A DNA stretch of 64,000 nucleotides from an uncultured delta proteobacterium (lineage in GTDB: Bacteria; Myxococcota_A; UBA9160; JAFDET01), in assembly GCA_947259215.1 (NCBI GenBank), contig CAMYLJ010000027.1, positions 1-64,000 of the forward strand, in the 5' to 3' direction. The notes under the pieces were generated by a model. The model searched no databases. It saw nothing but the letters and a program-made list of their open reading frames with translations, and had not been told where the DNA came from. Below are positions 25,346-52,120 of the stretch, one piece after another. Made by a program: the position numbers and the translations under genes. How positions within the stretch are numbered: position 1 is the first letter of the stretch; each line of letters opens with the position of its first letter.

Positions 25346-25444
25346 GGGCCCGTCCGCCCGGCGTCGGTCAAGTCGGCTGCGAGAAACGCCGAAGCAGGTG
25401 TACCCTAGTGGCTCGACTTGCGCATGATCGAAAGGGTCCACGCC

Positions 25445-26167
25445 ATGACGATCTCCGTCCACACTCCCGTGGTCGCCGCGCTCCTGCTGGCGCTGGCGCC
25501 GTCGCCCGGATGCCGCGCCACGTACGGAAACCCGACCGTCTCGGATCCCACCACGGTCTACCGCGTGGGCCCGCCCGATTCGCTGCTCATCACCGTCCTT
25601 CCCGAGCCGCTCATCAGCCGCAGCGTGATGGTGCGCCCGGACGGCATGATCTCCTTCGACCTCGTGGGCGACGTGCCCGCCGCCGGCCGCACGCCGACCG
25701 AGATCGCCAAGGACGTGGAGCAGCGCATCGCGCGCTACAAGCGCGACGCCAGCGTCACCGTCTTCCTGGCCGGAAGCGCCAGCACGACCGTCACCATCCT
25801 CGGCGAGGTACCGCGGCAGACGACCTTCCCGCTGCCGCGGGAGACACGCCTGATCGAGGTCATCGGGGCCGTCGGGGGTTGGCGGCCCAGTGCCGCGGCG
25901 AGCCGCATCCGGATCATCCGCACCAAGGGCGGGGAGCCCGAGGTCTTCGGCGCCAACCTGGACGCCATCATTCGGGGCGACATGCGGACCAACCACCTGC
26001 TGCGCGGCGGCGACATCATCTACGTACCCATGAACATCTCGGCCGCCATCGGCCGCGCCGTGGCGAAGGCACTCTCTCCGGTCACCGCGCTCTTCTCCCT
26101 GGGCCGGGCCGGGAACCAGGCGGCGGTCATGGTGCAGGGCGGCGGGTTCTCGGGCAACCAGCCGTGA
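25445..26167 (+). CDS. Wza-type polysaccharide export lipoprotein, copy 1
   Basis: 240 aa. A signal peptide ends at APSPGC, a weak lipobox. The Poly_export domain follows: YRVGPPDSLLITV, RPDGMISFDLVGDVPAAG and a SLBB-like module (GEVPRQTTFPLPRETRLIEV). LLRGGDIIYVPMN precedes a hydrophobic C-terminus. Proteins of this family form the outer-membrane polysaccharide exit channel; the short form fits the exosortase-associated type (TIGR03027). ATG 25445 has GAAAGG upstream; a TTG at 25418 is an alternative. Copy 2 follows with a 4-nt overlap. Confidence 0.85.
   Translation: MTISVHTPVVAALLLALAPSPGCRATYGNPTVSDPTTVYRVGPPDSLLITVLPEPLISRSVMVRPDGMISFDLVGDVPAAGRTPTEIAKDVEQRIARYKRDASVTVFLAGSASTTVTILGEVPRQTTFPLPRETRLIEVIGAVGGWRPSAAASRIRIIRTKGGEPEVFGANLDAIIRGDMRTNHLLRGGDIIYVPMNISAAIGRAVAKALSPVTALFSLGRAGNQAAVMVQGGGFSGNQP
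25556..25628 (+). repeat. 73-bp segment identical in both export genes
   Basis: Identical to 26275-26347 (offset 719 bp), covering the codons for VYRVGPPDSLLITVLPEP and what follows. Similarity continues at a lower level through most of both genes, marking a tandem gene duplication. Confidence 0.85.
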
Positions 26168-26934
26168 CGATCCGCGTCCGCACGCTGGCGGCGGCCGCGC
26201 TGCTCCTGGTGCTGGCGCCCTGTCTCGGCTGCCGCACCACCTACCCAAGCCCGGCTGACTCGGGTCCGACCGGCGTCTACCGCGTGGGCCCGCCCGATTC
26301 GCTGCTCATCACCGTCCTTCCCGAGCCGCTCATCAGCCGCAGCGTGAAGGTGCGCCCGGACGGCATGATCTCCTTCGACCTGGTGGGCGACGTCCCCGTC
26401 GCCGGCCGTACCGTGACCGAGATCGCCGAGGACATGGAGCGGCGCATCGCGCGCTACAAGCGCGACGCCAGTGTCACCGTCTTCCTCGCGGGCAGCTCCA
26501 GCACGACCGTCACCATCCTCGGCCAGGCGGGGCGTCAGACGACCTTCGCGCTGCCGCGGGACACGCGCCTGATCGAGGTCATCGGGGCCGTCGGCGGTTG
26601 GAGCCCCACCACTGCCGCGGCGAGCCGCATCCGGATCATCCGGCTCACGGACGGGGAGCCCGAGGTCTTCGGTGCCGACCTGAACGCCATCGTGAAGGGC
26701 GACCTGCGGACCAACTACCTGCTGCGTGGCGGGGACATCATCTTCATCCCCCGGAACGTCTCGGCCACCATCGGCCTGGCGGTGGCCAAGGCCCTGTTCC
26801 CCCTGAGCAGCATCATCAGCCTGAGCATCCAGGGGGGCCGGATTGCGATCATGGTGCAGAGCGGCGGGACCGCGGCCCTGGCGAGCAAGGCCTTCGGGGG
26901 CGTGCCCCTGGCTGGGCTGGCGGGCGGGCTCTGA
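26164..26934 (+). CDS. Wza-type polysaccharide export lipoprotein, copy 2
   Basis: 256 aa, a paralogue of the preceding gene with the same domain order. A better lipobox is present (LAPCLGC). The central Poly_export and SLBB-like regions are nearly identical to copy 1. The signal peptide and the C-terminal 45 residues differ; here the tail is more hydrophobic (SSIISLSIQGGRIAIMV). GTG start overlaps the copy-1 stop (GTGA). Copy 2 ends 167 nt before a strong terminator. Two channels with different tails could partner different polymers, or form a mixed ring. Confidence 0.85.
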   Translation: MTIRVRTLAAAALLLVLAPCLGCRTTYPSPADSGPTGVYRVGPPDSLLITVLPEPLISRSVKVRPDGMISFDLVGDVPVAGRTVTEIAEDMERRIARYKRDASVTVFLAGSSSTTVTILGQAGRQTTFALPRDTRLIEVIGAVGGWSPTTAAASRIRIIRLTDGEPEVFGADLNAIVKGDLRTNYLLRGGDIIFIPRNVSATIGLAVAKALFPLSSIISLSIQGGRIAIMVQSGGTAALASKAFGGVPLAGLAGGL

Positions 26935-27198: not shown

Positions 27199-28575
27199 AT
27201 GCGGTACTACCTGCTGAACCTGTACCTGAGCCGGGTGGCGATCGTCGTCCTGCTCGACCTCTTCTGCTTCGCGCTGGCCGCCACCCTCACCTGGTTCGCC
27301 CTCGAGCCGCCCGTCGCGCCCACGAGCTTCGCCCTCGGTGCCGCTGTGGCCGGAGTCGGTCTCTTCGTCCTGCTGCACTACACCGACGCCTACGGGCTCA
27401 TGGTGATCGGCAGCGGGCGCCGCACCTTCATGTGCATCTCCGCCACCGCGGGCATCCTGCTCATCGGCTCGCTCGCGGCGTGGTGGGTCGGGTCGCCCGA
27501 GCTCTGGCAGATCGAAACGGTCGCCCACACCGCCGGGCTCACCTTCGCATTCCTGCTGGTGGGGCGGCTGGGCTTCCGCGTGATCTCGGCGCGGCCCCGC
27601 TTCAGCCAGCGCGTGCTCATCGTCGGAGCCAGCGACCTCGGGCTCGCGATCGCCCGCGCCGTGCGCGATCGCCGCAACCTGGGTGCCGACATCGCAGGCT
27701 TCCTGTCCGACGACTTCGAGGACCAGGGGGCCTGGCTGGAGGGCTATCCGGTGCTCGGCCGCGGGCACGAGATCGAGAAGGTGCTCGACCGCGAGGAGAT
27801 CGGCCGCGTGGTGGTGGCCTCGAAGCGGCGGGAGGAGTACTTCCCCGCCCAGGAGCTGCTGCAGGCCAAGCTCGAGGGCCGCAGTGTCGAGTCCGGCGTC
27901 GCCTTCTACGAGCGCGTGACCGGCCGCATCTACCTGCGCGACCTCCGTGCCAGCTACCTGATCTTCTCCCCCGGCTTCCGCAACGGCCGCCTGTCGCTCC
28001 TCGCCAAGCGCGCCCTCGACGTGGTGGTGGCGGGAGCCGCCCTGGCGCTGCTGTGGCCGCTGCTCGGGCTGGCCGCGCTGGCGGTGAAGCTCGACTCGCC
28101 CGGCGCGGCGTTCTTCAGCCAGGAGCGGGTCGGCCGCTTCGGGCGCACCTATCGCCTCTACAAGCTGCGCTCGATGCGCGAGGGCGCCGAGGCCCAGTGC
28201 GGTCCTGCCTGGGCCGACAAGGACGACGCACGCACCACGCGCGTCGGCCGCATCCTGCGCAAGGCCCGGCTCGACGAGATCCCGCAGCTGTGGAACGTGC
28301 TGCGCGGGGAGATGAGCCTCGTGGGCCCGCGTCCCGAGCGGCCCGAGTTCGTCCAGGGGCTGTCCGAGCGATACCCCTACTTCCGGGCGCGCTTCGCCCT
28401 GCCCCCGGGCATCACCGGCTGGGCGCAGATCCGCCAGGGCTACGTCAACGAAGTGTCGGGGTGGGAAGAGAAGCTGGCGCTCGACCTGTACTACATGAAG
28501 TACCGCTCGCTCTCGATGGATCTGCTGATTCTCTGGAAGACGGTAAAGACCGTCTTCCTGATGAGCGGCGTCTAG
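27199..28575 (+). CDS. Polyprenyl-phosphate sugar-1-phosphate transferase (exosortase-type EPS)
   Basis: 458 aa. Four N-terminal membrane helices precede a Rossmann-like CoA-binding segment ([18 protein letters not shown]). A further helix ([20 protein letters not shown]) leads into the catalytic bacterial sugar transferase domain. Its signatures are [33 protein letters not shown] and [12 protein letters not shown]. It starts repeat-unit synthesis by moving a sugar phosphate to undecaprenyl phosphate; the layout fits the TIGR03013 group tied to exosortase loci. GGAAGGGGC lies directly before the ATG. The deacetylase gene follows after 4 nt. Confidence 0.93.
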
Positions 28576-28579
28576 TCAC

Positions 28580-29461
28580 TTGAGCGCCAACGCCCTGTCC
28601 GTCGACCTGGAGGAGTACTTCCAGGTCTCCAACTTCGATGGCGTGATCGAGCGCGAACGCTGGGACAGCCTGCCCTCGCGCGTGGCCGACCAGACCGAGC
28701 GCCTGCTGGATCTGTTCGACGCCTGCGCCTGCCGGGCGACCTTCTTCGCGCTCGGCTGGGTGGCCGAGCGACACCCGCAGCTCCTGCGTCGGATCGCGGA
28801 GCGCGGCCACGAGATCGCCTGCCACGGCTTCGGACACGAGCTCGTCTACACGCTCGGTCCCGATCGCTTCCGGGATGACGTGCGGCGCGCGCGGGCAGCG
28901 CTCGCGGACGCGGTGGGCGCCCCGATCAGCGGCTACCGCGCGCCCAGCTACTCCATCACCCGCGACTCGCTCTGGGCGCTGCCGATCCTGGTCGAGGAGG
29001 GCTTCGCCTACGACTCCTCGATCTTCCCGGTCCGCCACCCGCGCTACGGCATTCCGGGCTTCGCCCGCCGCCCGGTCCGGATCGAGCTGGCGAACGGCAC
29101 CTCGATCCGAGAGTTCCCCCTCACCACCGCGCGCGTGGGCCCCGTGTGGCTGCCCATCGCCGGAGGCGCCTACCTGCGCTTCCTGCCGGGACCGCTGCAT
29201 CGCTGGGCGTTCCGGCGCCTGGTCCGGGCCGGCGAGCCCACCCTGCTCTACGTGCATCCCTGGGAGATCGACCCGGAGCAGCCGCGGCAGCGGGTCGGGT
29301 GGCAGGTGCGGGTGAACCACTATCACAACCTGGGCCGCACGGAGCGCCGCTTGGAGGCGCTGCTGCGGGAGCACCGCTTCGCACCCCTGGGCGAGGTCCT
29401 GGAGGGGCTCGAGGCGGCCTCGGGGCTTCCCCGGGTGCCGCTGGAGGCGATGGCCGCCTGA
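28580..29461 (+). CDS. Polysaccharide deacetylase, exosortase-locus type
   Basis: 293 aa, a NodB-fold deacetylase of the XrtA-associated group with the DUF3473-like C-terminus. Visible are SVDLEEYFQVSNF with the catalytic/metal Asp, GHEIACHGFGHELVYTL with the metal His residues, GYRAPSYSIT, and LLYVHPWEIDPEQPR near the end. It probably removes N-acetyl groups from the exopolysaccharide. The TTG start lacks a good Shine-Dalgarno and depends on coupling to the sugar transferase stop four nt upstream. Confidence 0.88.
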   Translation: MSANALSVDLEEYFQVSNFDGVIERERWDSLPSRVADQTERLLDLFDACACRATFFALGWVAERHPQLLRRIAERGHEIACHGFGHELVYTLGPDRFRDDVRRARAALADAVGAPISGYRAPSYSITRDSLWALPILVEEGFAYDSSIFPVRHPRYGIPGFARRPVRIELANGTSIREFPLTTARVGPVWLPIAGGAYLRFLPGPLHRWAFRRLVRAGEPTLLYVHPWEIDPEQPRQRVGWQVRVNHYHNLGRTERRLEALLREHRFAPLGEVLEGLEAASGLPRVPLEAMAA

Positions 29462-29573
29462 CCCGCGGGGAAGCGCGTCCGAGTAACTTCGGGATCGTTC
29501 GTCACCTTTCGCCGGGTGAGGGATACTCCTCAAGCACCTGGCTGCCCGGGCAAGGGACGGAACCGCACCTGGC

Positions 29574-31718
29574 ATGATGAGCGTCTTCGCCGACTTCCAG
29601 CTCGAGGACATCTTCGAGCTCATCGATCGCCGCAAGTGGTGGCTCGCGATGGCGCTCGTCGTGGGTCTGGCCTTCGGGGTGCTGGCCTACGTGGTGCTGC
29701 CGGCGACCTACGTGTCCAGCACGACCATCCTGGTGGAGCCCCAGGAGATCCCCAGTGAGTTCGTCAAGTCCACGGTCACCCTCGGCGTGAAGCAGCGCCT
29801 GCGCACGCTCAGCGAGCGCGTGACGAGCTTCGCCAACCTGACGTTGCTGATCGAGGCCGTGGGGGAGGACGTGCTCGATCCCGAGGGCGGCATGGGTCGC
29901 GAGGCGATCATGAACGTGATCCGAGGGAAGCTGGACGTCGAGCTCCAGGGTGGCACGGGCTCGTCGGTGTTCCAGATCAGCTATCGCGACAAAGATCCGG
30001 AGCGGGCGGCCGCCGTGACGCGCCAGGTCGCCGACCTGTTCGTCGCGGAGAACATCAAGGACCGCGCCGCCCAGGCGACCACGACGGCGGAGTTCCTCGA
30101 CCGCGAGCTCGCGAAGCTGTCCGTGGAGCTCGAGCGGATGGAGACCGAGTTCGCCAACTTCCGGAAGCAGCAGTCGGGGGCGCTACCGGACCAGCTCGAC
30201 GCGAACCTGCACAGCCTCGAGCGGCTGGACGATGCGGTGCAGGCGAACCGGGAGTCCCAGACCCAGATCCAGGAGCGGATCGCCCTGCTGGAGGACAGGA
30301 TGACGTCGCCGCTGTTCGCAGGCGACGACGAGGCCTTGCCCGCGAATTCGCCGGCCGCCCAGCTGATCGGCCTGCGCGCCAGCCTCAGGAACGCCGAGCG
30401 GGTCTACACCGCGGAGCATCCGAACGTGGTGCGGCTCCGCAACGAGATCGCGGTGGTCGAGAAGGAGGTCGAGGAGGCCGCCGCCGCGGCCGACGCGGGA
30501 GACCTCTCGCGGCTCGACCCCACCACGCGCCGGTTCGTGGTGCAGATCGAACGGGAGAAGCTGCAGCTCGTCTCCCTGCAGCGCAAGGAGGCGACCCTGC
30601 GCGCGCGCATCCAGGAGGTGGAGCGCCGCGTGGACGAGACGCCAGACCTCGCCCACGACATGCAGGCGATGCTGCGCCAGATCGGCAGCCTGCGCGCCAC
30701 CTACAGCAGGCTGCTCGCCAAGAAGCGGGACGCTTCCCTGGCTCGCAATCTGGAGATGGCGCAGAAAGGAGAGCGCTTCAAGGTGTTGCGGCCCGCCCGC
30801 GCGCCCCGCTACCCGGCCTCTCCGAGCCTGTGGATCACCCTGCCGGCAGGCGTGGCGCTCAGCCTCGCGATCGTCGTCGTGCTGATCCTGGTGGCCGAGA
30901 CGCGCAACCCCTCCTTCCGCTCGGTGGCCCGCCTGACGCGATCCCTCGGCCTGCCGGTGCTGGCGTCGGTACCGCGGATCGACGACGACCGCATCTTCGA
31001 GGACGGACCGCCCGACGACGTGGACCCGAGGTTGGTGGTGCACACAGCGCCCGAGTCGGCGCCGGCCGAGCAGTACCGGAGCTTCGTGCCGGTCTTCCTG
31101 GAGGACGAGAAGCGCCGGGTCGTCCTGGTGACGAGTGCCGCCCGCGGCGACGGCAAGTCGCTGACCTGCATGAACCTGGCGCTCACGGTGGCACGCGACG
31201 TCAATCGCCGCGTCCTGGTGATCGATGCGGACCTGCGTCGCCCGACGGCGCACCGGCTCCTGCGCGTGCGCGCCCCGGCGGGTCTCACGGAGGTGCTCGG
31301 GGGCAGCGCAAGCTTCGAGGAGACGGTCATCACGACCCAGGTCCCGAACCTGTCCCTGCTGGCGGCGGGTCGGGCGACCAAGAACCCCCTGACCCTCCTC
31401 ACCGACAAGTCCTTCCTCGAGCTGCTGGAGCACGCACGCAACGACTACGACGCCATCTTCATCGACTCGCCGCCGCTCATGCCCGTGGTGGACACGAAGC
31501 TGCTGCGCAAGCTGGCCGACATGGTCGTGTTCGTGGTGCGCGCGGACGCGACGCCGCGCGAGGCCGTGCTCCGCTCGCTCAAGGAGATGCGCGAGGTCGC
31601 CGGCGTGGTGTTCAACCAGGTCAGCGCGGGCTCGTTCCGCCGCTACTACTACTACGACGCCTACTCCCGCTACGCCTACGGCGAGCCCGGCGAGGGAGGC
31701 TCCGATGAAGATGTCTGA
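29574..31718 (+). CDS. Wzc-type chain-length determinant fused to tyrosine autokinase
   Basis: 714 aa. First membrane helix about 23-42, a periplasmic Wzz domain with long coiled coil (about 60-400), second helix about 423-443, then a cytoplasmic BY-kinase. Kinase motifs are Walker A SAARGDGKS (about 521), Walker A-prime VLVIDADLRRP (about 548) and Walker B IFIDSPPL (about 628). A tyrosine cluster YYYYDAYSRYAYG lies near the C-terminus. It controls polymer length, with cycling driven by autophosphorylation and by a phosphatase, for which the gene at 39086 is a candidate. It combines in one chain what are separate proteins in many exosortase loci. Confidence 0.93.
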   Translation: MMSVFADFQLEDIFELIDRRKWWLAMALVVGLAFGVLAYVVLPATYVSSTTILVEPQEIPSEFVKSTVTLGVKQRLRTLSERVTSFANLTLLIEAVGEDVLDPEGGMGREAIMNVIRGKLDVELQGGTGSSVFQISYRDKDPERAAAVTRQVADLFVAENIKDRAAQATTTAEFLDRELAKLSVELERMETEFANFRKQQSGALPDQLDANLHSLERLDDAVQANRESQTQIQERIALLEDRMTSPLFAGDDEALPANSPAAQLIGLRASLRNAERVYTAEHPNVVRLRNEIAVVEKEVEEAAAAADAGDLSRLDPTTRRFVVQIEREKLQLVSLQRKEATLRARIQEVERRVDETPDLAHDMQAMLRQIGSLRATYSRLLAKKRDASLARNLEMAQKGERFKVLRPARAPRYPASPSLWITLPAGVALSLAIVVVLILVAETRNPSFRSVARLTRSLGLPVLASVPRIDDDRIFEDGPPDDVDPRLVVHTAPESAPAEQYRSFVPVFLEDEKRRVVLVTSAARGDGKSLTCMNLALTVARDVNRRVLVIDADLRRPTAHRLLRVRAPAGLTEVLGGSASFEETVITTQVPNLSLLAAGRATKNPLTLLTDKSFLELLEHARNDYDAIFIDSPPLMPVVDTKLLRKLADMVVFVVRADATPREAVLRSLKEMREVAGVVFNQVSAGSFRRYYYYDAYSRYAYGEPGEGGSDEDV

Positions 31719-31929
31719 GCACGAGTTCCTCACGACCGCCCAGGTCCTCGGTCTGTTGCAGATCGGGCGCACCAAGCTGTGGGAGCTGGTGCGGGACGGG
31801 GCCTTTCCTGCGTACCGCATCGGCGAGGGGGCGAACGCCCCGCTCCGCTATCGACGCCTCGACGTCGTGGGCTGGCTCGAGAGCCGGCGCGTCGGCGCCA
31901 GCGACACCCAACAACCCGTCGCCGAATGA
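31705..31929 (+). CDS. Small excisionase-type helix-turn-helix protein
   Basis: 74 aa, almost entirely one MerR-like/excisionase HTH: FLTTAQVLGLLQIGRTKLWELVRDG then RIGEGANAPLRYRRLDVVGWLESRR. The domain normally binds DNA in excisionases or small regulators (HTH_17, TIGR01764-type). It overlaps the end of the Wzc gene by 14 nt with its own GGGAGG, and its stop overlaps the next gene (ATGA). It is thus embedded in the exopolysaccharide operon, where a feedback regulator is plausible. No mobile element accompanies it. Confidence 0.8.
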   Translation: MKMSEHEFLTTAQVLGLLQIGRTKLWELVRDGAFPAYRIGEGANAPLRYRRLDVVGWLESRRVGASDTQQPVAE

Positions 31930-33407
31930 GCCCGCCGCTGGCGCGCCCGCTGCCACCGCGACCGCGAGCGTGGGAGTGGTGGGTCGCCGGAGCCGGCGCC
32001 GGGATCCTGCTGGGCGTGGCCGAGTCGGCGCTGGCGCAGCTCGCCGGCGCCCCGCTGCCGCCGCGCCTCACCTTCGCCTACGTGGGCATTGCCGGCGTCT
32101 TCTGCGCCGCCGGGGCGGGGCTGGTGGGTGCGACCGTCGGCCGTCGCGAGGGGCGGTCAGCGCTCGCGGGCTGGGTGCTGGCGCCCGTGGTCGCCCTGCC
32201 CGCGCTGGCTGGAGCCGCCCGACTGACCGTGGCGGACGAGCCGCGGACGGCGGCCCTGCTGGCCGCGCTGGCCCTGACGGGCGGCGGCATCCTGGGCTGG
32301 GTCGCCTCCCGAGCCGCCACCCGCCTGGAGGCGGCGGGCGTCCCGATTGCGGGCTGGGGGCTGTGGACCGGGGCGGCGCTCCTCGTGGCCGGCGCCGAGC
32401 AGGCGACCGGCCCGACCGCCGGCCTCGGCGTCGCGGTGGGCGCCCTGTTGGCCGCCTTCGCAGCCACGGCCGGGGCCGCCTGGCTCGCGGCGCGACCCCG
32501 CCGGATACGCACCTCCTGGGGCGTCGCCATGGTCGTGCTGGCGCTGCTCACCTGCGCCGTGGCCTGGCTCGAGCCCCTGCGTCGCCTGGCGGTGGATCCC
32601 GGCGCTCAGCGGCCGGTGGTGCGCGCGCCCGCCAGCCTCCTGGCCGTCTCCCTGCCGCCCGAGGGCGACGAGACGGAGGACCTCGCCTCCTGGGGGGTCG
32701 CGACCTCCCAGGCGCTGGCGTTCGACGAGCTGATCGAGGGGGTTGCCCCCGCCGATCTGCCGGACGTGCTGCAGCTCAGCTCCGGAGAGCCGCTCGTCGC
32801 CGTGCTCGCAGCGAGCGGCTACGCCACGGCCACCATCCTGCGCGATCCCCTGCGCGAGGCCCCGGCCGGCGCTCGTGAGCTCGACGAACGCCTCGCCGCC
32901 GGCGGGATGCTGCGCCGTCACGGCGGCCGCGCCGCGGGAGGTCAGCTGCTGCTGGCGTTGGCGCCGGAACAACGCCAGGCGGTCGGCCTCGACGAGACCC
33001 TGCGCGGGCCCGAAGCTTTGACGTCGTCCGCGCTGCTCTGGCTGGCGGGCTGGCGCTGGCAGCGCTCGAGCAACCCCTTCGCGCTGGTCGTGGACTACGG
33101 CGCCCGGGGCGAGCGGCGAGCGCCCCCTGAAACGGGGGCCCAGCTGGCGGAGCTGCTCGAGGCGCTCTATCTGCTCGAGGCCGATGCCAGCACCTTCGTG
33201 CTGGTGCTGCGGCCCGAGCCCGGCGGCCCCACCCGGCTCGCACTGCGGGTGCCCCCGCTTTGGCGAGACGCCCCGCGCGGCGCGGTTGCGCGGGAACCCG
33301 TCGCCGCCGGCGCCTGGGCGGACGGGCTCTTCCGCAGTCTCGCCAGCCCGCCGGCCGCTCCCGTCTGGATGCCGGGGATGACCTTCGAGCCGCTGCTCGC
33401 GGACTAG
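31926..33407 (+). CDS. Polytopic membrane protein with periplasmic C-terminal domain
   Basis: 493 aa. About seven hydrophobic segments occupy residues 15-225, then a soluble domain of about 260 residues. The family is not recognised. The soluble part (PEGDETEDLASWGVATSQALAFDEL and later VVDYGARGE) has a spacing that recalls membrane-bound sulfatase/phosphoglycerol-transferase proteins. It lacks their metal ligands, so a degenerate alkaline-phosphatase fold is only a suggestion. The ATG overlaps the HTH gene stop. It is the last gene of the Wzc transcription unit. Confidence 0.65.
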   Translation: MSPPLARPLPPRPRAWEWWVAGAGAGILLGVAESALAQLAGAPLPPRLTFAYVGIAGVFCAAGAGLVGATVGRREGRSALAGWVLAPVVALPALAGAARLTVADEPRTAALLAALALTGGGILGWVASRAATRLEAAGVPIAGWGLWTGAALLVAGAEQATGPTAGLGVAVGALLAAFAATAGAAWLAARPRRIRTSWGVAMVVLALLTCAVAWLEPLRRLAVDPGAQRPVVRAPASLLAVSLPPEGDETEDLASWGVATSQALAFDELIEGVAPADLPDVLQLSSGEPLVAVLAASGYATATILRDPLREAPAGARELDERLAAGGMLRRHGGRAAGGQLLLALAPEQRQAVGLDETLRGPEALTSSALLWLAGWRWQRSSNPFALVVDYGARGERRAPPETGAQLAELLEALYLLEADASTFVLVLRPEPGGPTRLALRVPPLWRDAPRGAVAREPVAAGAWADGLFRSLASPPAAPVWMPGMTFEPLLAD

Positions 33408-39791: not shown

Positions 39792-40616
39792 ATGCAAGGG
39801 CCTCGAACCGCCGCGAGGGAGACGGCCGTCTGGTTGGCACTGGCCGTGGGCTTCTCCCCGGTTCTGGTGGATCTCGCTCGCAATTTGCTCGCCTTCCCCC
39901 ACGATCATTGCACCCTGGTCGCCCCCGTGCTGCTCGCCCTGGCGCTGCGTCCCGGCGCGCCCCGCCAGCGGCCGCGGCCCGGCCTGGGCGCGGGACTGCT
40001 CGCCTGCGGCGCTGGCCTCCAGCTCGCCGGGATCGCCATCGACGGCTGGAGCGTGTCCCGGCTGGGGCTGCCGGTCGCAGCCCTCGGCGTGGCGGCCTGG
40101 CTGGGGCGCCCGCCTCTGGCGGCGACCGCCCTGCTCTTCTGGCTCGTGCCGGTTCCGGACTCCATCCTGGACGCCGTCAGCCCGAGCGGTGAGTCGCTGC
40201 TCAGCCAGCTGGGTGTCGCGCTGATCCGGCCTCTGGCCGCCGGGCTCGAGGCTGTGGGCCCGCTCGTGCGTGCGGGCGACGCCTACCTGCCGCTGGAGGC
40301 CGGCGACTGGGGTCACGCCCCGATCGCGGCCCTCTCGGCGACGGGCTGGTTCGCTTCGGTCCGGCTGGGACGCAACGTGGCCACCGGGATGCTGTGGGCC
40401 GCGCTCGGCGGGGCCGCCGGGGTCGCGGCCCAGCTGGTCTTCGGGGTCCTCGGCATCGCCTGGTTCGCGCTGGGGGATCCGGCGGGCCTGGCCTTCGTCT
40501 GGATCCGGCAGCTGGCCTGGCTGCTGCCGACCCTCGCCGCCACGTTCGCGATCGAGCAGCGAGCCCGGTCCGCGAAACTGGATGCAGAAGCAGGCGCAAC
40601 TCGCTACGGAAACTGA
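39792..40616 (+). CDS. Exosortase-like membrane protein lacking the catalytic residues
   Basis: 274 aa with about eight membrane segments in the EpsH/exosortase arrangement. The N-terminal loop FPHDHCTLVAPVLLALAL corresponds to the usual YSHG-type segment. In place of the catalytic CSGL motif it has LEAGDWGHAPIAAL. In place of the ANxxR motif it has AAQLVFGVLG, and no His follows in the last loop. The only Cys is near the N-terminus. It is therefore exosortase by fold and context (EpsI nearby) but probably not a transpeptidase. A GTG at 39717 with TACCAT 12 nt upstream could give a 299-aa form. Confidence 0.7.
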   Translation: MQGPRTAARETAVWLALAVGFSPVLVDLARNLLAFPHDHCTLVAPVLLALALRPGAPRQRPRPGLGAGLLACGAGLQLAGIAIDGWSVSRLGLPVAALGVAAWLGRPPLAATALLFWLVPVPDSILDAVSPSGESLLSQLGVALIRPLAAGLEAVGPLVRAGDAYLPLEAGDWGHAPIAALSATGWFASVRLGRNVATGMLWAALGGAAGVAAQLVFGVLGIAWFALGDPAGLAFVWIRQLAWLLPTLAATFAIEQRARSAKLDAEAGATRYGN

Positions 40617-40674
40617 CGATTTCAGATCCGTCACCGGCGTAACCCCGAGGGCCACTCACCTCGGATGGCTGCGG

Positions 40675-40711
40675 TATGCTGCCGCATCCCACCGGCGGGT
40701 CCCGCCGGTGG
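40675..40711 (+). promoter_or_regulatory. -10 element followed by an 11-bp-arm palindrome
   Basis: TATGCT (40675-40680) is followed after 8 nt by CCACCGGCGGG (40689-40699), T, CCCGCCGGTGG (40701-40711). Transcription would start at the foot of the palindrome, so it could be an operator at +1 or a 5' mRNA hairpin for the gene at 40755. Confidence 0.5.
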
Positions 40712-40754
40712 CGCGGCGGGCCGCACTGCTTCGGGGGGAGGATCGGCACCCGCA

Positions 40755-42167
40755 ATGAGTCGCGTCGTGATCCTCGGTGGCGGGCCGGCCGGGCTCGGGG
40801 CCGCCTACTGGCTGGCCTCGCGCGGCCTGGCGCCCGTCGTGATCGAGCAACGCGAGAGCGTCGGCGGCAACGCCGGCAGCTTCGAGCTGGCGGGGCTGCG
40901 CGTCGACTACGGCAGCCACCGCCTGCACCCGGCCGCCGACCCCGGGGTGCTGGCCACCCTGCGCGAGCTCCTGGGCGACGACCTGCTGGAGCGGCCGCGC
41001 CACGGCCGCATCCGTCTGCTGGATCGCTGGCTCCACTTTCCCCTGCGTCCCCTCGACCTGGTGCGTCGGGCTCCGCCGCGCTTCGTCGCGGGGGTCGCCA
41101 CGGACGTGCTCCGCAAGCTGGTCCCGAGCAGCGCCAACGGACCGGAGACCTTCGCCAGCGTCCTCGAGCGCGGCCTCGGCCGCACGATCTGCCGCGACTT
41201 CTACTTCCCCTACGCGCGCAAGATCTGGGGCCTCGACCCGGAAGCCATCTCCCCGACCCAGGCGTACAAGCGTGTCTCGTCGGGAACCCTCGGCAAGCTG
41301 GTGCGCCGGCTGCTGCCGGGCGGCACCGGGCCCGGCGCCGGCCAGCGCCGCGGTGTCTTCTACTACCCGCGCAAGGGCTACGGGCAGATCAGCGAGGCCC
41401 TGTGCGAGGCAGCCGCGGAGCGCGGCGCGGACATCCGTCTGGGCACGAAGGTGGCCCGCGTGGGACTGGCCGAGGGCGGCGCGCGGGTCGAGGTGATTCG
41501 CGGCGCCGAGGACGAGGAGCTCGTCGCGGATCACGTGTGGTCGACGATCCCCATGGGCGTCCTCGTGCGCCTGCTCGACCCGAAAGCCCCCACCGCCGTG
41601 GAGTCGGCGGCCCGCGAGCTCGAGCTGCGCGCGATGCTGCTGGTCTACCTGGTGCTGGAGGAAGATCGCTTCAGCGAGTACGACGCCCACTACTTCCCGG
41701 GCCTGGACATCCCATTCACTCGCCTGTCCGAGCCGAAGAACTACGCGGCCCGCTTCGAACCGCCGGGACGCACGGTGCTCTGCGCCGAGATCCCCTGCTC
41801 CAGCGACGACCCCGTGTGGCTGTTCGACGAGGCCGCGCTCGGCGACCTGGTGCGCGAAGGCCTGGCCCGCGCGGGCCTGCCCGTCCGCAGCCGCGTCGCC
41901 GAGGTGGCGGTACGCCGCCTGCCCGCCGCGTATCCGATCTACAGCCACGGCTACGAGGAACGCTTCGAGCGGGTGGACGCCTGGCTCGGCGTGCAGCCGC
42001 GCTTGCTCTCCTTCGGCCGTCAGGGTCTCTACGCCCACGACAACACCCACCACGCCCTCTACATGGCCCGCTGCGCGGCGGACTGCCTGGGGAGCGGGGG
42101 CGACTTCGACGCCGACCGCTGGGCGGGGTACCGCCGGGAATTCGAATCGCATGTGGTCGAGGACTGA
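40755..42167 (+). CDS. FAD-dependent amine-oxidase/UGM-like oxidoreductase
   Basis: 470 aa. The dinucleotide fold ILGGGPAGLGAAYWLASRG is followed by GGNAGSFELAGLRVDYGSHRLHP, the layout of protoporphyrinogen-oxidase and UDP-galactopyranose-mutase-like flavoproteins. The C-terminal FAD contact is GLYAHDNTHHALYMA. In polysaccharide loci such enzymes may alter lipid-linked or nucleotide sugars, but the reaction is unknown. GGGGGAGG is 13 nt upstream of the ATG. It is paralogous to the flavoprotein at 49016, without the membrane module. epsI follows after 8 nt. Confidence 0.85.
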   Translation: MSRVVILGGGPAGLGAAYWLASRGLAPVVIEQRESVGGNAGSFELAGLRVDYGSHRLHPAADPGVLATLRELLGDDLLERPRHGRIRLLDRWLHFPLRPLDLVRRAPPRFVAGVATDVLRKLVPSSANGPETFASVLERGLGRTICRDFYFPYARKIWGLDPEAISPTQAYKRVSSGTLGKLVRRLLPGGTGPGAGQRRGVFYYPRKGYGQISEALCEAAAERGADIRLGTKVARVGLAEGGARVEVIRGAEDEELVADHVWSTIPMGVLVRLLDPKAPTAVESAARELELRAMLLVYLVLEEDRFSEYDAHYFPGLDIPFTRLSEPKNYAARFEPPGRTVLCAEIPCSSDDPVWLFDEAALGDLVREGLARAGLPVRSRVAEVAVRRLPAAYPIYSHGYEERFERVDAWLGVQPRLLSFGRQGLYAHDNTHHALYMARCAADCLGSGGDFDADRWAGYRREFESHVVED

Positions 42168-42175
42168 GGAGCCGG

Positions 42176-42826
42176 GTGACTCGCGATCGACTGACGCTGG
42201 CCGCCCTGTGCGTTGTGCTCGTCGCCCTCGGCGCTTTGGCCTGGGTCCTGAGCCTGCGGCCGGCGCTTCAGCCCCAGGCCGAGACGCTGCAGCAGCTGCC
42301 GCGTTCGATCGGCGGCTGGGAGGGAAGCAATGTTCCCCTCGAGAACAACGTGGAGTCGGTCCTGCAAGCCGACTTCAATCTCCAGCGCGCCTACCAGCAC
42401 CCCACCGGCGCCACCATCTGGCTCTACATCGGCTACTACGGTACCGCGCGAGGCGGGCGCCCCGAGCACACGCCTCGCAGCTGCTACACGTCGGCGGGCT
42501 GGGGGATCGCCCGCTCCCGCACGATCCCCGTCGCGGGCCAGCTGCGGGTCCGCGAGTTGCTGGTGGAGCAGCCCGGCCAGCGCCGACTCGTCCACTACTG
42601 GCTGCGGTCATGGCGTCGCACGGGGATGGTGAGCGGGTTCGAGCAGAACCTGGATCGCCTGCGCGGGCGGCTCGGGGGAGGCCGGGCCGACGGCGCCCTG
42701 GTGCGACTCTCGACGCCCCTGGACGTGGACGAGGAGGCAGCGCGCAGCCGCCTGATCGCCTTCGCGACCGAGCTGGATCCGTTGCTGGCGCAGCGCTGGC
42801 CCGAGGAAGTGGCGTCATCGCGCTGA
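42176..42826 (+). CDS. EpsI-family protein (exosortase-associated)
   Basis: 216 aa. One N-terminal membrane helix (LAALCVVLVALGALAWVL) anchors a periplasmic EpsI/DUF3485-type domain with LPRSIGGWEG, WLYIGYYGTARGGRPEH and the family hallmark PRSCYTSAGWGI. EpsI is found next to, or fused to, exosortases and is needed for methanolan-type polysaccharide in Methylobacillus; its molecular role is open. GTG start with GAGGAG upstream. The stop abuts the convergent LOG gene with no gap (TGATCA). Confidence 0.88.
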   Translation: MTRDRLTLAALCVVLVALGALAWVLSLRPALQPQAETLQQLPRSIGGWEGSNVPLENNVESVLQADFNLQRAYQHPTGATIWLYIGYYGTARGGRPEHTPRSCYTSAGWGIARSRTIPVAGQLRVRELLVEQPGQRRLVHYWLRSWRRTGMVSGFEQNLDRLRGRLGGGRADGALVRLSTPLDVDEEAARSRLIAFATELDPLLAQRWPEEVASSR

Positions 42827-48698: not shown

Positions 48699-49019
48699 TC
48701 AGGCGGTGTGGCGCAGGTCCACGACCCGGTTGTAGATCCAGGCCAACGTCCAGCCGAGCAGGCCTCCCAGCAGGGCCCCGTAGACCAGCCCGGCCAGCGA
48801 GCCCGGCCAGGTAACGGAATAGCCCGGGAAGTAGTTCGACAGCAGGTTCAGGTGCAGGCCCACGTTGGGGCCGCCCCGCAGCAGCAGCCAGACGGTGGCG
48901 AGGAACAGGCCCGTGCCCCCCACCATGCCGAACACGACCGCCATCACGTTCGCGCGCAGCCGCGCCACGGCGCGCGCGATCAGCTGCGCTTCCTGCTCTT
49001 CCAGGGTGCGTACCGTCAC
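48699..49019 (-). CDS. Small two-to-three-helix membrane protein
   Basis: 106 aa. It has a charged N-terminal helix ([18 protein letters not shown]), a hydrophobic helix and [21 protein letters not shown] then [21 protein letters not shown]. It ends with a third hydrophobic stretch. The same pattern, LLLRGG-(x)n-LLxNYFxGYxVTWxG, forms the C-terminus of the adjacent flavoprotein, so the two are paralogous modules. I know of similar conserved membrane proteins but not a function. The GTG overlaps the flavoprotein stop (GTGA). Confidence 0.8.
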
Positions 49020-50836
49020 GAGTCGACCTCCGTCGGATCCATGGTCCGGGCCAGCTCGAGCCGCCGGATCAGCGCGGTCTCGTGGATGCCCACGACGGCG
49101 TTGATGGTGCGGGCCAGCAGCCAGCCGAACGCGAAGCCGCCCAGGGCGGCCTCGCCGAGGCCGATGAGGGCACCTACCCAGGTCACGTCGTAGCCCAGGA
49201 AGTAGTTCGCCAGCAGCGAGAGGTTGTTCCCCACCAGGATGCCGCCCCGCAGCAGCAGGATCGCCGTGGCCAGGAACAGGCCGAAGCCCGCCACCGCGCC
49301 CACCGCGGCGCCGAGGGCCACGGGGTCGTAGCGGGCGAAGGCCGACAGCACCTGCTCCTCGGGGGTCGGCAGCTCGGCCCGGCCGGGCACCAGGCGATCG
49401 CCGGACGCGGGCTGCGCCGACTCCTCGCGGACCTCCTCGTGGTACTCGTCGTCCACGTTCACCGACCAGACGTCGTGGCTGGCCCCGACGATGTTCTCCA
49501 CCGCCAGCACCGCCGTCATCATCGAGTGGTCCTGATTGTTGTAGCGGTGCTGGCCGTTGCGCCCGATCAGCTGGAGGTTCTCGATCGGGTCGAGCCAGCC
49601 GCGCAGCACCTGGAGCGCCTCCTGGTAGCCTCCGTCGTACACCGGGTACGCCTTGGGGATGCGGATCACGCAGCCGTCCCGCACCTCCTCGGCTCGGATC
49701 AGGCCGAGCGCCGCGCACTCCCGGGTGCCGAGCTCGATCAGGTCGTCGTCGGGGGCGGCCCAGAGCTCGTCGCCCTCCTGCACGAAGTACTCGAGGCCGA
49801 GGCAGGTCCGCTGCGGGTCGGCCACCATGTGGGGGCTCCAGTTCTTGAAGTTCTGGATGCGTCCCATCTTCACGTCGGGCGAATGGATGTAGATCCAGTT
49901 GTCCGGGAAGACCTCGTCCCGGTCCACGATCAGGCCCACGGTCAGGAAGTCCCGGTACCGCAGGCGGTCCGCAGCGGCGAGGATCTCGGGGGGCGGCGCC
50001 GGCTCGAAGGCGTGCAGGAGCTCGCGGATCGGCATCGAGGAGAGCACGTGCTCGGCCTCCACGTCGCGCTCCTGGCCGCCGGCCTCGCGCACCGTCACCT
50101 TCCGCACGCGGCCGTCGGCGTGGTGAAGCCGAACCACCCCCGCGCCCAGCACGACGTCCGTCCCGCGCTCCACCAGCTGGTCCTGGGCGGACTCCCACAT
50201 CTGCCCGGGTCCGTGGCGCGGGTAGTGGAACTCGTCGATGAGGGTGGCCACGATCTCGCCCCGGGTCGCCAGCGAGCCCAGCAGCGCGTTGCGCACCGCC
50301 GTCACCAGGTCGAGGTTCTTGATCCGCTGCGCGGCCCAGTCGGCGCCGATCTCCGAGCACGGCATGCCCCACACCTTCTCCGTGTAGGTCTCGAAGAAGA
50401 TCTCGAACAGGCGCCGCCCGAAGCGGTTCGTCACCCACTGCTCGAAGGTGCGCTCGTCCGCGTGGGGCAGGATCTGGGCCTTCACGTAGGAGAGGCCGAT
50501 CCGGATCGCCTCGATCGGACCCAGACCCAGCAGGGCGTTCATGGGCTTCAGCGGGTAGTCGAAGAAGCGCTCGCCGTAGAAGATGCGGGACAGCCGCGGG
50601 CGCACCAGGAACTCGTCGCCGAGGATCTCACGCCAGAGCGCGTTCACCCGCTCCACCTTGGTGAAGAAGCGGTGGCCGCCGATGTCGAAGCGGTAGCCCT
50701 TGTACTCGACCGTGCGGCTGATGCCGCCCACCAGCTCGTCGGCCTCGAAGACCACGCAGCGGCGGCCCAGGCGCGCGAGCTCCCAGGCAGCCGTCAGGCC
50801 AGCCGGCCCCGCGCCGATGACGACGGTCTCGGACAT
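49016..50836 (-). CDS. FAD oxidoreductase fused to a C-terminal membrane module
   Basis: 606 aa. Residues 1-480 form a UDP-galactopyranose-mutase-like flavoprotein: [40 protein letters not shown] and [18 protein letters not shown] linker leads to two or three membrane helices (about 505-580) containing [21 protein letters not shown] and [20 protein letters not shown], the module also found in the next gene. The fusion would place the enzyme at the membrane, consistent with action on a lipid-linked sugar. ATG 50836 begins the FAD fold. First gene of the operon to 45798. Confidence 0.88.
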
Positions 50837-51382: not shown

Positions 51383-52120
51383 CTAGAGAAAATACTCGAG
51401 CCCTCGCCCCCAAGGGCCCATCACCAGGGCGTAAATCGCCGCATTGCTGACGGCGTGAGCCAGCACGCAGGCCCCGATGTGGCCGCGCCGATAGAGCCAC
51501 AGGGTGTAGATCGCGCCGGTCGCGAAGGCGACCGGCCACTCCCAGGTCTGATGGGACACGCCGAAGTAGACGACGCTGATCCAGAAGCTCCAGGCCGAGT
51601 AGCGGGCCATCGGGAGATCGCGGAAGTCGCGACTCGCGTCGATCTCGAGCCGCCCGCCGCGCCACGACACCAGCTCGGCGCCGCGCAGCAGGAAGCTCCG
51701 CACGAAGAGCTCTTCCACGAAGGGCGTGACCCCGACGAAGCCCACGAGCCGCAGCAGCCGTCCCGCATCGGCCCAGCCCGGACCGAGCGCGTCGGCGTCG
51801 AAGCCCGCCTCCGGGCCGGGGTGCCCGAGCACCCCGAGCGCATACGGGACCACCCACAGCGCCGCCACGCCGAGCCCGAGGGCCGCGTCGGCGAGCAGGC
51901 CCCCCGGCGAGAGCCGCATTCCACGCAGCTCCGGGAAGCACCCGCGCGCCGCGTAGGCGACGAAGAGGCTCCCGGGAACGACGACCTGGAGCACGAGGAC
52001 GAACGCCGCGGCGCGGTGTGGCAGCCAGGCGCCGACGCTCACGATGGCCAGGAACGCCGCGTACGGAACCACGTACGGCTCCCAGCCCCGCGCCCGTCGC
52101 GTCCCCTCGCCACTGCTCAC
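51383..52120 (-). CDS. CAAX/CPBP intramembrane metalloprotease, exosortase-associated type
   Basis: 245 aa with about six helices. CPBP motifs are intact: the Glu pair in FVEELFVRSFLLRG (about 135), His in VYFGVSHQTWEW, and HIGACVLAHAVSNAAIYA near the end. The PEP-CTERM/exosortase-linked CAAX-related family (TIGR03008) has this form, and such proteases are often located with EPS/exosortase genes. The substrate is unknown. A Gly-rich in-frame ATG lies at 52147, but GTG 52120 has the better G-rich ribosome site. Confidence 0.82.
   Translation of the reverse strand: MSSGEGTRRARGWEPYVVPYAAFLAIVSVGAWLPHRAAAFVLVLQVVVPGSLFVAYAARGCFPELRGMRLSPGGLLADAALGLGVAALWVVPYALGVLGHPGPEAGFDADALGPGWADAGRLLRLVGFVGVTPFVEELFVRSFLLRGAELVSWRGGRLEIDASRDFRDLPMARYSAWSFWISVVYFGVSHQTWEWPVAFATGAIYTLWLYRRGHIGACVLAHAVSNAAIYALVMGPWGRGLEYFL

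What the first reader, a model, noticed from the sequence alone, without database searches (positions are those of the whole stretch)
39792..42826. Exosortase-like protein without catalytic Cys/Arg/His beside EpsI
The protein at 39792 has exosortase topology and context (EpsI at 42176, XrtA-type EPS genes around). The CSGL-type motif is replaced by GDWGHAP, the ANxxR-type motif by AAQLVFG, and the late His is absent. Known exosortases need the Cys-Arg pair for transpeptidation. A non-catalytic member could act in polymer translocation, in step with EpsI, rather than protein sorting, and no PEP-CTERM substrate is visible here. This could be a distinct functional branch.
Basis: partly seen in the sequence, partly recalled or inferred. 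Interest (0 to 1): 0.7.

Follow-up and report, generated by a model that had tools for sequence, protein, structure and literature searches.

The report
Catalytically dead exosortase paired with EpsI
A membrane protein related to exosortases (enzymes that cut and release tagged surface proteins) has lost its cutting residues across a whole bacterial order, yet is always inherited with its own kind of the partner protein EpsI and usually with one particular working exosortase, so it looks like a conserved non-cutting helper rather than a broken gene.

Summary
The protein at 39792-40616 is a true but distant exosortase homologue: family profile against exosortase profile E 2e-13, and 7 of 24 relatives hit PF09721. 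Cys becomes Asp172, Asn becomes Gln214, Arg becomes Phe217 and His becomes Arg239. It is not a sequencing error. In 34 distinct relatives from one uncultured Myxococcota order, none has the Cys or the Arg, while 20 of 20 compared exosortases have the full set. The relatives form one clade (support 100/100).

It has its own type of EpsI. Over 61 genomes, 28 have both, 0 have the protein alone, 3 have that EpsI alone and 30 have neither (p 3e-14). That EpsI type never adjoins a catalytic exosortase; the other type does in 36 of 37 cases. The protein is also co-inherited with one catalytic exosortase lineage (25 of 28 genomes against 7 of 33), but not with XrtA.

'Polymer translocation rather than protein sorting' is not shown, and no genome has this type without a catalytic exosortase. 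The likeliest reading is a non-catalytic partner in an exosortase-dependent exopolysaccharide and surface-protein pathway. Function is inferred only. New variant of a known kind.

The parts
39792..40616 (+). Non-catalytic exosortase-like membrane protein (274 aa)
   Evidence: hhalign of its family against exosortases, prob 98, E 2.2e-13; AlphaFold2 mean pLDDT 94.4; hydropathy and Arg/Lys distribution fit about eight membrane helices
40305..40307 (+). Codon of Asp172, at the position of the exosortase catalytic Cys
   Evidence: joint alignment: Asp in 22 of 34 relatives, otherwise Gln/Arg/Trp/Glu/His/Ala, never Cys
40431..40433 (+). Codon of Gln214, at the position of the Asn of N-x-x-R
   Evidence: Gln in 32 of 34 relatives
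40440..40442 (+). Codon of Phe217, at the position of the catalytic Arg
   Evidence: small or hydrophobic residues in relatives, never Arg
40506..40508 (+). Codon of Arg239, at the position of the late His
   Evidence: mostly Asp in relatives; His in one
40755..42167 (+). FAD-dependent amine-oxidase-like protein (similar to UDP-galactopyranose mutase-like PRK07208 models) between the two genes
   Evidence: PF01593 E 3.8e-29, NF005547 E 1.7e-75, below that model's cut-off; not seen at this place in relatives, so probably not part of the pair
42176..42826 (+). EpsI of type N: one N-terminal membrane helix and a periplasmic alpha/beta domain; the only DUF3485 gene of this genome
   Evidence: TIGR02914/PF11984; AlphaFold2 mean pLDDT 92.9; keeps EpsI invariants H98 P100 C103 G108 W109 R170 D172 G173 R177
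25424..26934 (+). Two Wza-like export genes of TIGR03027 type in tandem (25424-26167, 26164-26934)
   Evidence: NCBIfam, below cut-off
27199..31718 (+). Sugar transferase (TIGR03025), polysaccharide deacetylase (TIGR03006), chain-length/tyrosine-kinase protein (TIGR03007, TIGR03018)
   Evidence: TIGR03006 at 348 bits is over its cut-off of 276

Best explanation
This is a member of a conserved, catalytically inactive clade of exosortase homologues that works as the membrane partner of a dedicated EpsI subtype ('type N'). I infer that the pair forms a non-cutting module at the inner membrane of an XrtA-type exopolysaccharide machine. The inactive protein keeps the exosortase fold and its outward-facing pocket, now lined by Asp/Gln instead of Cys/Arg/His, and positions EpsI and perhaps a bound substrate (a sorted protein's C-terminal helix, or the exopolysaccharide or its lipid carrier). 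Cleavage is done by a separate catalytic exosortase, in this genome most likely the copy at G000:C7:27795-28616. Shown: the homology, the loss of the residues across the clade, exclusive pairing with type-N EpsI, co-inheritance with one catalytic exosortase lineage, and the exopolysaccharide gene context. Inferred: physical interaction, topology, what is bound, and the helper role.
For: Homology: hhalign E 2.2e-13; PF09721 hits in 7 of 24 members. Loss of Cys and Arg in 34 of 34 relatives against 20 of 20 intact exosortases; one clade, 100/100. EpsI type N: 31 genes at 264-307 bits, all others at 106 or less; 16 of 31 within 200 bp and same strand as the inactive gene, 0 of 31 beside a catalytic one; type A 36 of 37 beside a catalytic one. 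Co-occurrence 28/0/3/30, p 2.6e-14; one genome per genus, median p 3e-9. Catalytic partner lineage: 25/3 against 7/26, p 9e-8; XrtA control p = 1. Partial Mantel controlling for IF-2: inactive protein vs EpsI-N r 0.20, p 0.02; EpsI-N vs catalytic partner r 0.26, p 0.02. Same-locus arrangement of all three in G016, G035, G040, G045. Operon context: XrtA-type ATPase, kinase, Wzz, Wza and sugar transferase.
Against: Co-inheritance is not contact. Distances of the inactive protein and the catalytic partner do not correlate (r -0.02), though the inactive protein's distances are saturated. G027, G029 and G037 have the pair without that catalytic lineage; G015, G023 and G058 have that lineage without the pair (G024 has it with only a frame-broken copy). 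In most genomes the catalytic gene is at another locus. An exopolysaccharide-only role fits the operon equally well.
Confidence: 0.5

Rival explanations
1. One reading: the inactive protein, with EpsI, acts in translocation, polymerisation or assembly of the exopolysaccharide and has nothing to do with protein sorting.
For: It sits in an exopolysaccharide export cluster; no flippase or polymerase was recognised in the window's cluster or on its contig; EpsI keeps its own invariant residues although the exosortase lost its own.
Against: Flippase and polymerase families exist elsewhere in the genome. All 28 genomes also have a catalytic exosortase, and the inactive protein tracks one lineage of them. 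In Methylobacillus the catalytic EpsH was dispensable for exopolysaccharide (PMC1569441).
Confidence: 0.28
2. An enzyme with a changed active site: Asp (C position), Gln (N position) and often Asp (H position) form a new catalytic centre acting on protein, glycan or lipid carrier.
For: Gln at the N position in 32 of 34 and Gly of C-x-G nearly invariant; Asp at the Cys position in 22 of 34.
Against: The Cys position also holds Gln, Glu, His, Trp, Arg or Ala, and the His position varies widely; no position but Gln214 is polar and nearly invariant among the three motifs. The family evolves fast (mean distance 2.96 against 1.38 for the catalytic lineage).
Confidence: 0.12
3. A decaying paralogue or sequencing error without function.
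For: One relative (G024, locus L052) is broken by a frameshift, and that genome also lacks EpsI-N. The family diverges fast.
Against: Intact in 34 distinct relatives with a shared new motif set, strict EpsI partnership, confident fold.
Confidence: 0.03

Closest known systems
Exosortase A (XrtA/EpsH, TIGR03109, TIGR02602, PF09721) with adjacent EpsI
   Same: fold family, P-x-P and Gly of C-x-G, EpsI next door, exopolysaccharide cluster with TIGR03006/03007/03013/03018/03027-type genes
   Different: no Cys, Asn, Arg or His; own EpsI type; too divergent for NCBIfam or, in most members, Pfam detection
EpsI (TIGR02914, PF11984/DUF3485)
   Same: all core invariant residues, one membrane helix and a periplasmic domain
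   Different: type-N residues such as R71, Y88, G93-G94 and E127, where type A has C, H, R/E and R
L001-type catalytic exosortase of the same order (own copy at G000:C7:27795-28616; nearest models XrtW, XrtA, TIGR02602)
   Same: co-inherited; in four genomes in the same locus
   Different: intact Cys-Asn-Arg-His; usually at another locus and without an EpsI beside it
XrtF and its associated protein of Flavobacterium johnsoniae (PMC10936215)
   Same: exosortase-family gene needed for biofilm, with a partner gene and no known substrate
   Different: not tested here whether XrtF lacks catalytic residues; different phylum and partner

Membership tests
Exosortase (PF09721 / TIGR02602) | sequence homology to the family | tested here: met
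   profile-profile E 2.2e-13; 7 of 24 relatives hit PF09721 at E<=0.01, best 2.8e-10; the window protein alone does not
Exosortase (PF09721 / TIGR02602) | catalytic Cys in C-x-G | tested here: not met
   D172; 0 of 34 relatives have Cys
Exosortase (PF09721 / TIGR02602) | N-x-x-R motif | tested here: not met
   Q214 and F217; 0 of 34 have Arg
Exosortase (PF09721 / TIGR02602) | H-x-x-x-G motif | tested here: not met
   R239; His in 1 of 34
Exosortase (PF09721 / TIGR02602) | about eight membrane helices | tested here: inconclusive
   AlphaFold2 helices, hydropathy and Arg/Lys distribution are compatible with eight; no dedicated topology predictor was run
Exosortase (PF09721 / TIGR02602) | cleaves PEP-CTERM proteins | not testable with these tools
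   26 PEP-CTERM proteins above cut-off in the genome, none on this contig; three catalytic exosortases elsewhere
EpsI (TIGR02914 / PF11984) | score over curated cut-off | tested here: met
   122.5 bits against 42.8; 153.2 bits against 26.1
EpsI (TIGR02914 / PF11984) | invariant H-x-P-x-x-C, G-W and R-x-D-G-x-x-x-R | tested here: met
   H98 P100 C103 G108 W109 R170 D172 G173 R177
XrtA-type exopolysaccharide locus | XrtA-system genes nearby | tested here: met
   TIGR03006 over cut-off; TIGR03007/03013/03018/03027 strong but below cut-off

The most novel reading that the evidence does not exclude
A split exosortase: a catalytic exosortase and an inactive exosortase paralogue with its own EpsI act together as one sorting and export complex, with cutting in one subunit and substrate or polymer coupling in the other. 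This would be the first pseudoenzyme role described for the exosortase family, as far as the held literature shows.
Probability: 0.3. Interest if true: 0.75.

Novelty: new variant of a known kind. Interest (0 to 1): 0.6.

Why it matters
EpsI has been a conserved companion of exosortases with no known function since 2006. Here is a natural case in which EpsI keeps all its invariant residues while its exosortase partner has lost catalysis. That implies EpsI has a job that does not depend on cleavage by the exosortase beside it. It also shows that exosortase homology does not by itself mean protein sorting, and gives a defined set of genes (inactive protein, EpsI-N, one catalytic exosortase) for testing how protein sorting and exopolysaccharide export are coupled.

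Tried and rejected
A sequencing error or pseudogene was rejected by conservation. Genomes with this type but no catalytic exosortase: none among 28. EpsI fold matches (SciW, START-like; E about 0.02, low TM-scores) are too weak to use. The alignment A1 was too variable for a collection scan, so EpsI was used instead. Literature searches in the held open-access library found no non-catalytic exosortase and nothing on DUF3485; the 2012 Haft paper is not held, so prior mention cannot be excluded. The FAD protein between the genes was considered as a third partner and dropped, because relatives lack it between their pair.

Full report
What is there. The window lies on contig C27 of a 5.7-Mb genome in 128 contigs. 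Relatives fetched from named records are metagenome-assembled genomes labelled mostly Deltaproteobacteria or Myxococcota, a few only Proteobacteria or bacterium, plus one Spirochaeta label. The gene at 39792-40616 (+) encodes 274 residues. Downstream on the same strand are an FAD amine-oxidase-like gene (40755-42167) and EpsI (42176-42826). The surrounding cluster holds two Wza-like genes, a sugar transferase, an XrtA-system polysaccharide deacetylase (over its cut-off), a chain-length/tyrosine-kinase protein and several glycosyltransferases.

Is it an exosortase homologue? The single sequence has no Pfam hit, and on NCBIfam only a weak one to XrtW (E 0.14). Searching 60 related genomes found homologues in 26 of them besides its own. 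The family alignment (A1) against 18 bona fide exosortases (A2) gives hhalign probability 98 and E 2.2e-13 over 235 columns. Seven of 24 members hit PF09721 at E 0.01 or better, best 2.8e-10. So the homology is real but remote.

The catalytic residues. In a joint alignment, the Cys, Asn, Arg and His of exosortases are intact in 20 of 20 compared exosortases. In 34 distinct relatives, the window protein included, the Cys position holds Asp in 22 and never Cys, the Asn position holds Gln in 32, the Arg position never holds Arg, and the His position holds His once. The window protein has D172, Q214, F217 and R239. A maximum-likelihood tree separates the 30 inactive from the 20 catalytic sequences with 100/100 support; the root between them was not determined. 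The AlphaFold2 model is confident (pLDDT 94.4). Hydropathy and the distribution of Arg and Lys are compatible with eight membrane helices, with these positions near the outer face (topology inferred).

Distribution. A profile search of 284 genomes of the phylum found members only in the window's own order. Clear members score 130 bits or more. Below that come two divergent members at 70-73 bits (G029, G037), which also lack the residues, and catalytic exosortases at 66 bits or less.

EpsI comes in two types. A profile of EpsI genes next to the inactive protein separates 31 type-N genes (264-307 bits) from all others (106 or less) in 61 genomes. Type A lies within 200 bp and on the same strand as a catalytic exosortase in 36 of 37 cases and never beside the inactive protein. 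Type N is beside the inactive protein in 16 of 31 and never beside a catalytic one. Type N was defined from EpsI genes near the inactive protein, which favours the adjacency count, but the wide score gap and the co-occurrence in genomes where the genes are far apart or on different contigs do not depend on that. By genome: 28 have both, 0 only the intact inactive protein, 3 only type-N EpsI, 30 neither (Fisher 2.6e-14; one genome per genus, median 3e-9). G024 has a frame-broken copy and no EpsI-N. Type-N EpsI keeps the residues invariant in both types (H98, P100, C103, G108, W109, R170, D172, G173, R177). In this genome it is the only EpsI, although there are three catalytic exosortases.

A catalytic partner lineage. 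One exosortase lineage (own copy at G000:C7:27795-28616) scores 257-452 bits with its own profile, against 195 or less for other exosortases, and occurs in 31 genomes plus fragments in G012. It is present in 25 of 28 genomes with the inactive protein and 7 of 33 without (p 9e-8; strict count p 5e-7); one genome per genus, median p 2e-5. XrtA shows no association (16 of 28 against 19 of 33, p = 1). In G016, G035, G040 and G045 the two lie within about 3 kb, with XrtA-type ATPase, kinase, Wzz, Wza and sugar transferase genes nearby. Partial Mantel tests controlling for IF-2 distances give weak signals for inactive protein with EpsI-N (r 0.20, p 0.02) and EpsI-N with the catalytic lineage (r 0.26, p 0.02), and none for inactive with catalytic.

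Interpretation. The data support a functional unit of inactive protein and type-N EpsI in an exopolysaccharide export setting, in the same pathway as one catalytic exosortase. I consider a non-cutting partner role most likely (0.5). New chemistry using Asp and Gln is less likely because the Asp is not invariant. Co-occurrence does not prove contact, the named members come from assembled environmental genomes, and I know of no experiment on any of them.

Comparison with the known. Exosortases are defined by invariant Cys, Arg and His (PMC1569441) and mediate PEP-CTERM protein sorting (for example PMC12188702). This family fails the three motif tests, so it should be called an exosortase homologue, not an exosortase. 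The held open-access literature has no description of such a branch, but the library is incomplete and the main 2012 survey is not held.

Noticed in passing
window 51383-52072 (-): A CPBP/Rce1-like membrane protease (PF02517, E 1.8e-11), the family to which, from memory, myxosortases belong, lies about 9 kb from EpsI; whether it sorts MYXO-CTERM proteins was not tested.
   Followed up: no
window 25424-26167 and 26164-26934 (+): Two Wza-like export genes in tandem that share the stretch YRVGPPDSLLITVLPE, apparently a duplication.
   Followed up: no
L052 (G024:C35) 611-1799: A frame-broken copy of the inactive exosortase gene in a genome that lacks type-N EpsI; either an assembly error or loss of the pair in progress.
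   Followed up: partly
EpsI, window 42176-42826: The predicted EpsI fold has weak resemblance to SciW (a chaperone that binds membrane helices of effectors) and START-like proteins (E about 0.02, low TM-scores); a possible lead for EpsI binding hydrophobic helices or lipids.
   Followed up: partly
window 31926-33407 (+): A 493-residue protein with hydrophobic N-terminal half and no Pfam or NCBIfam match inside the exopolysaccharide cluster.
   Followed up: partly
window 40755-42167 and 49016-50836: Two distinct FAD amine-oxidase-like proteins (PRK07208-type, UDP-galactopyranose-mutase-like) within 10 kb of each other.
   Followed up: no
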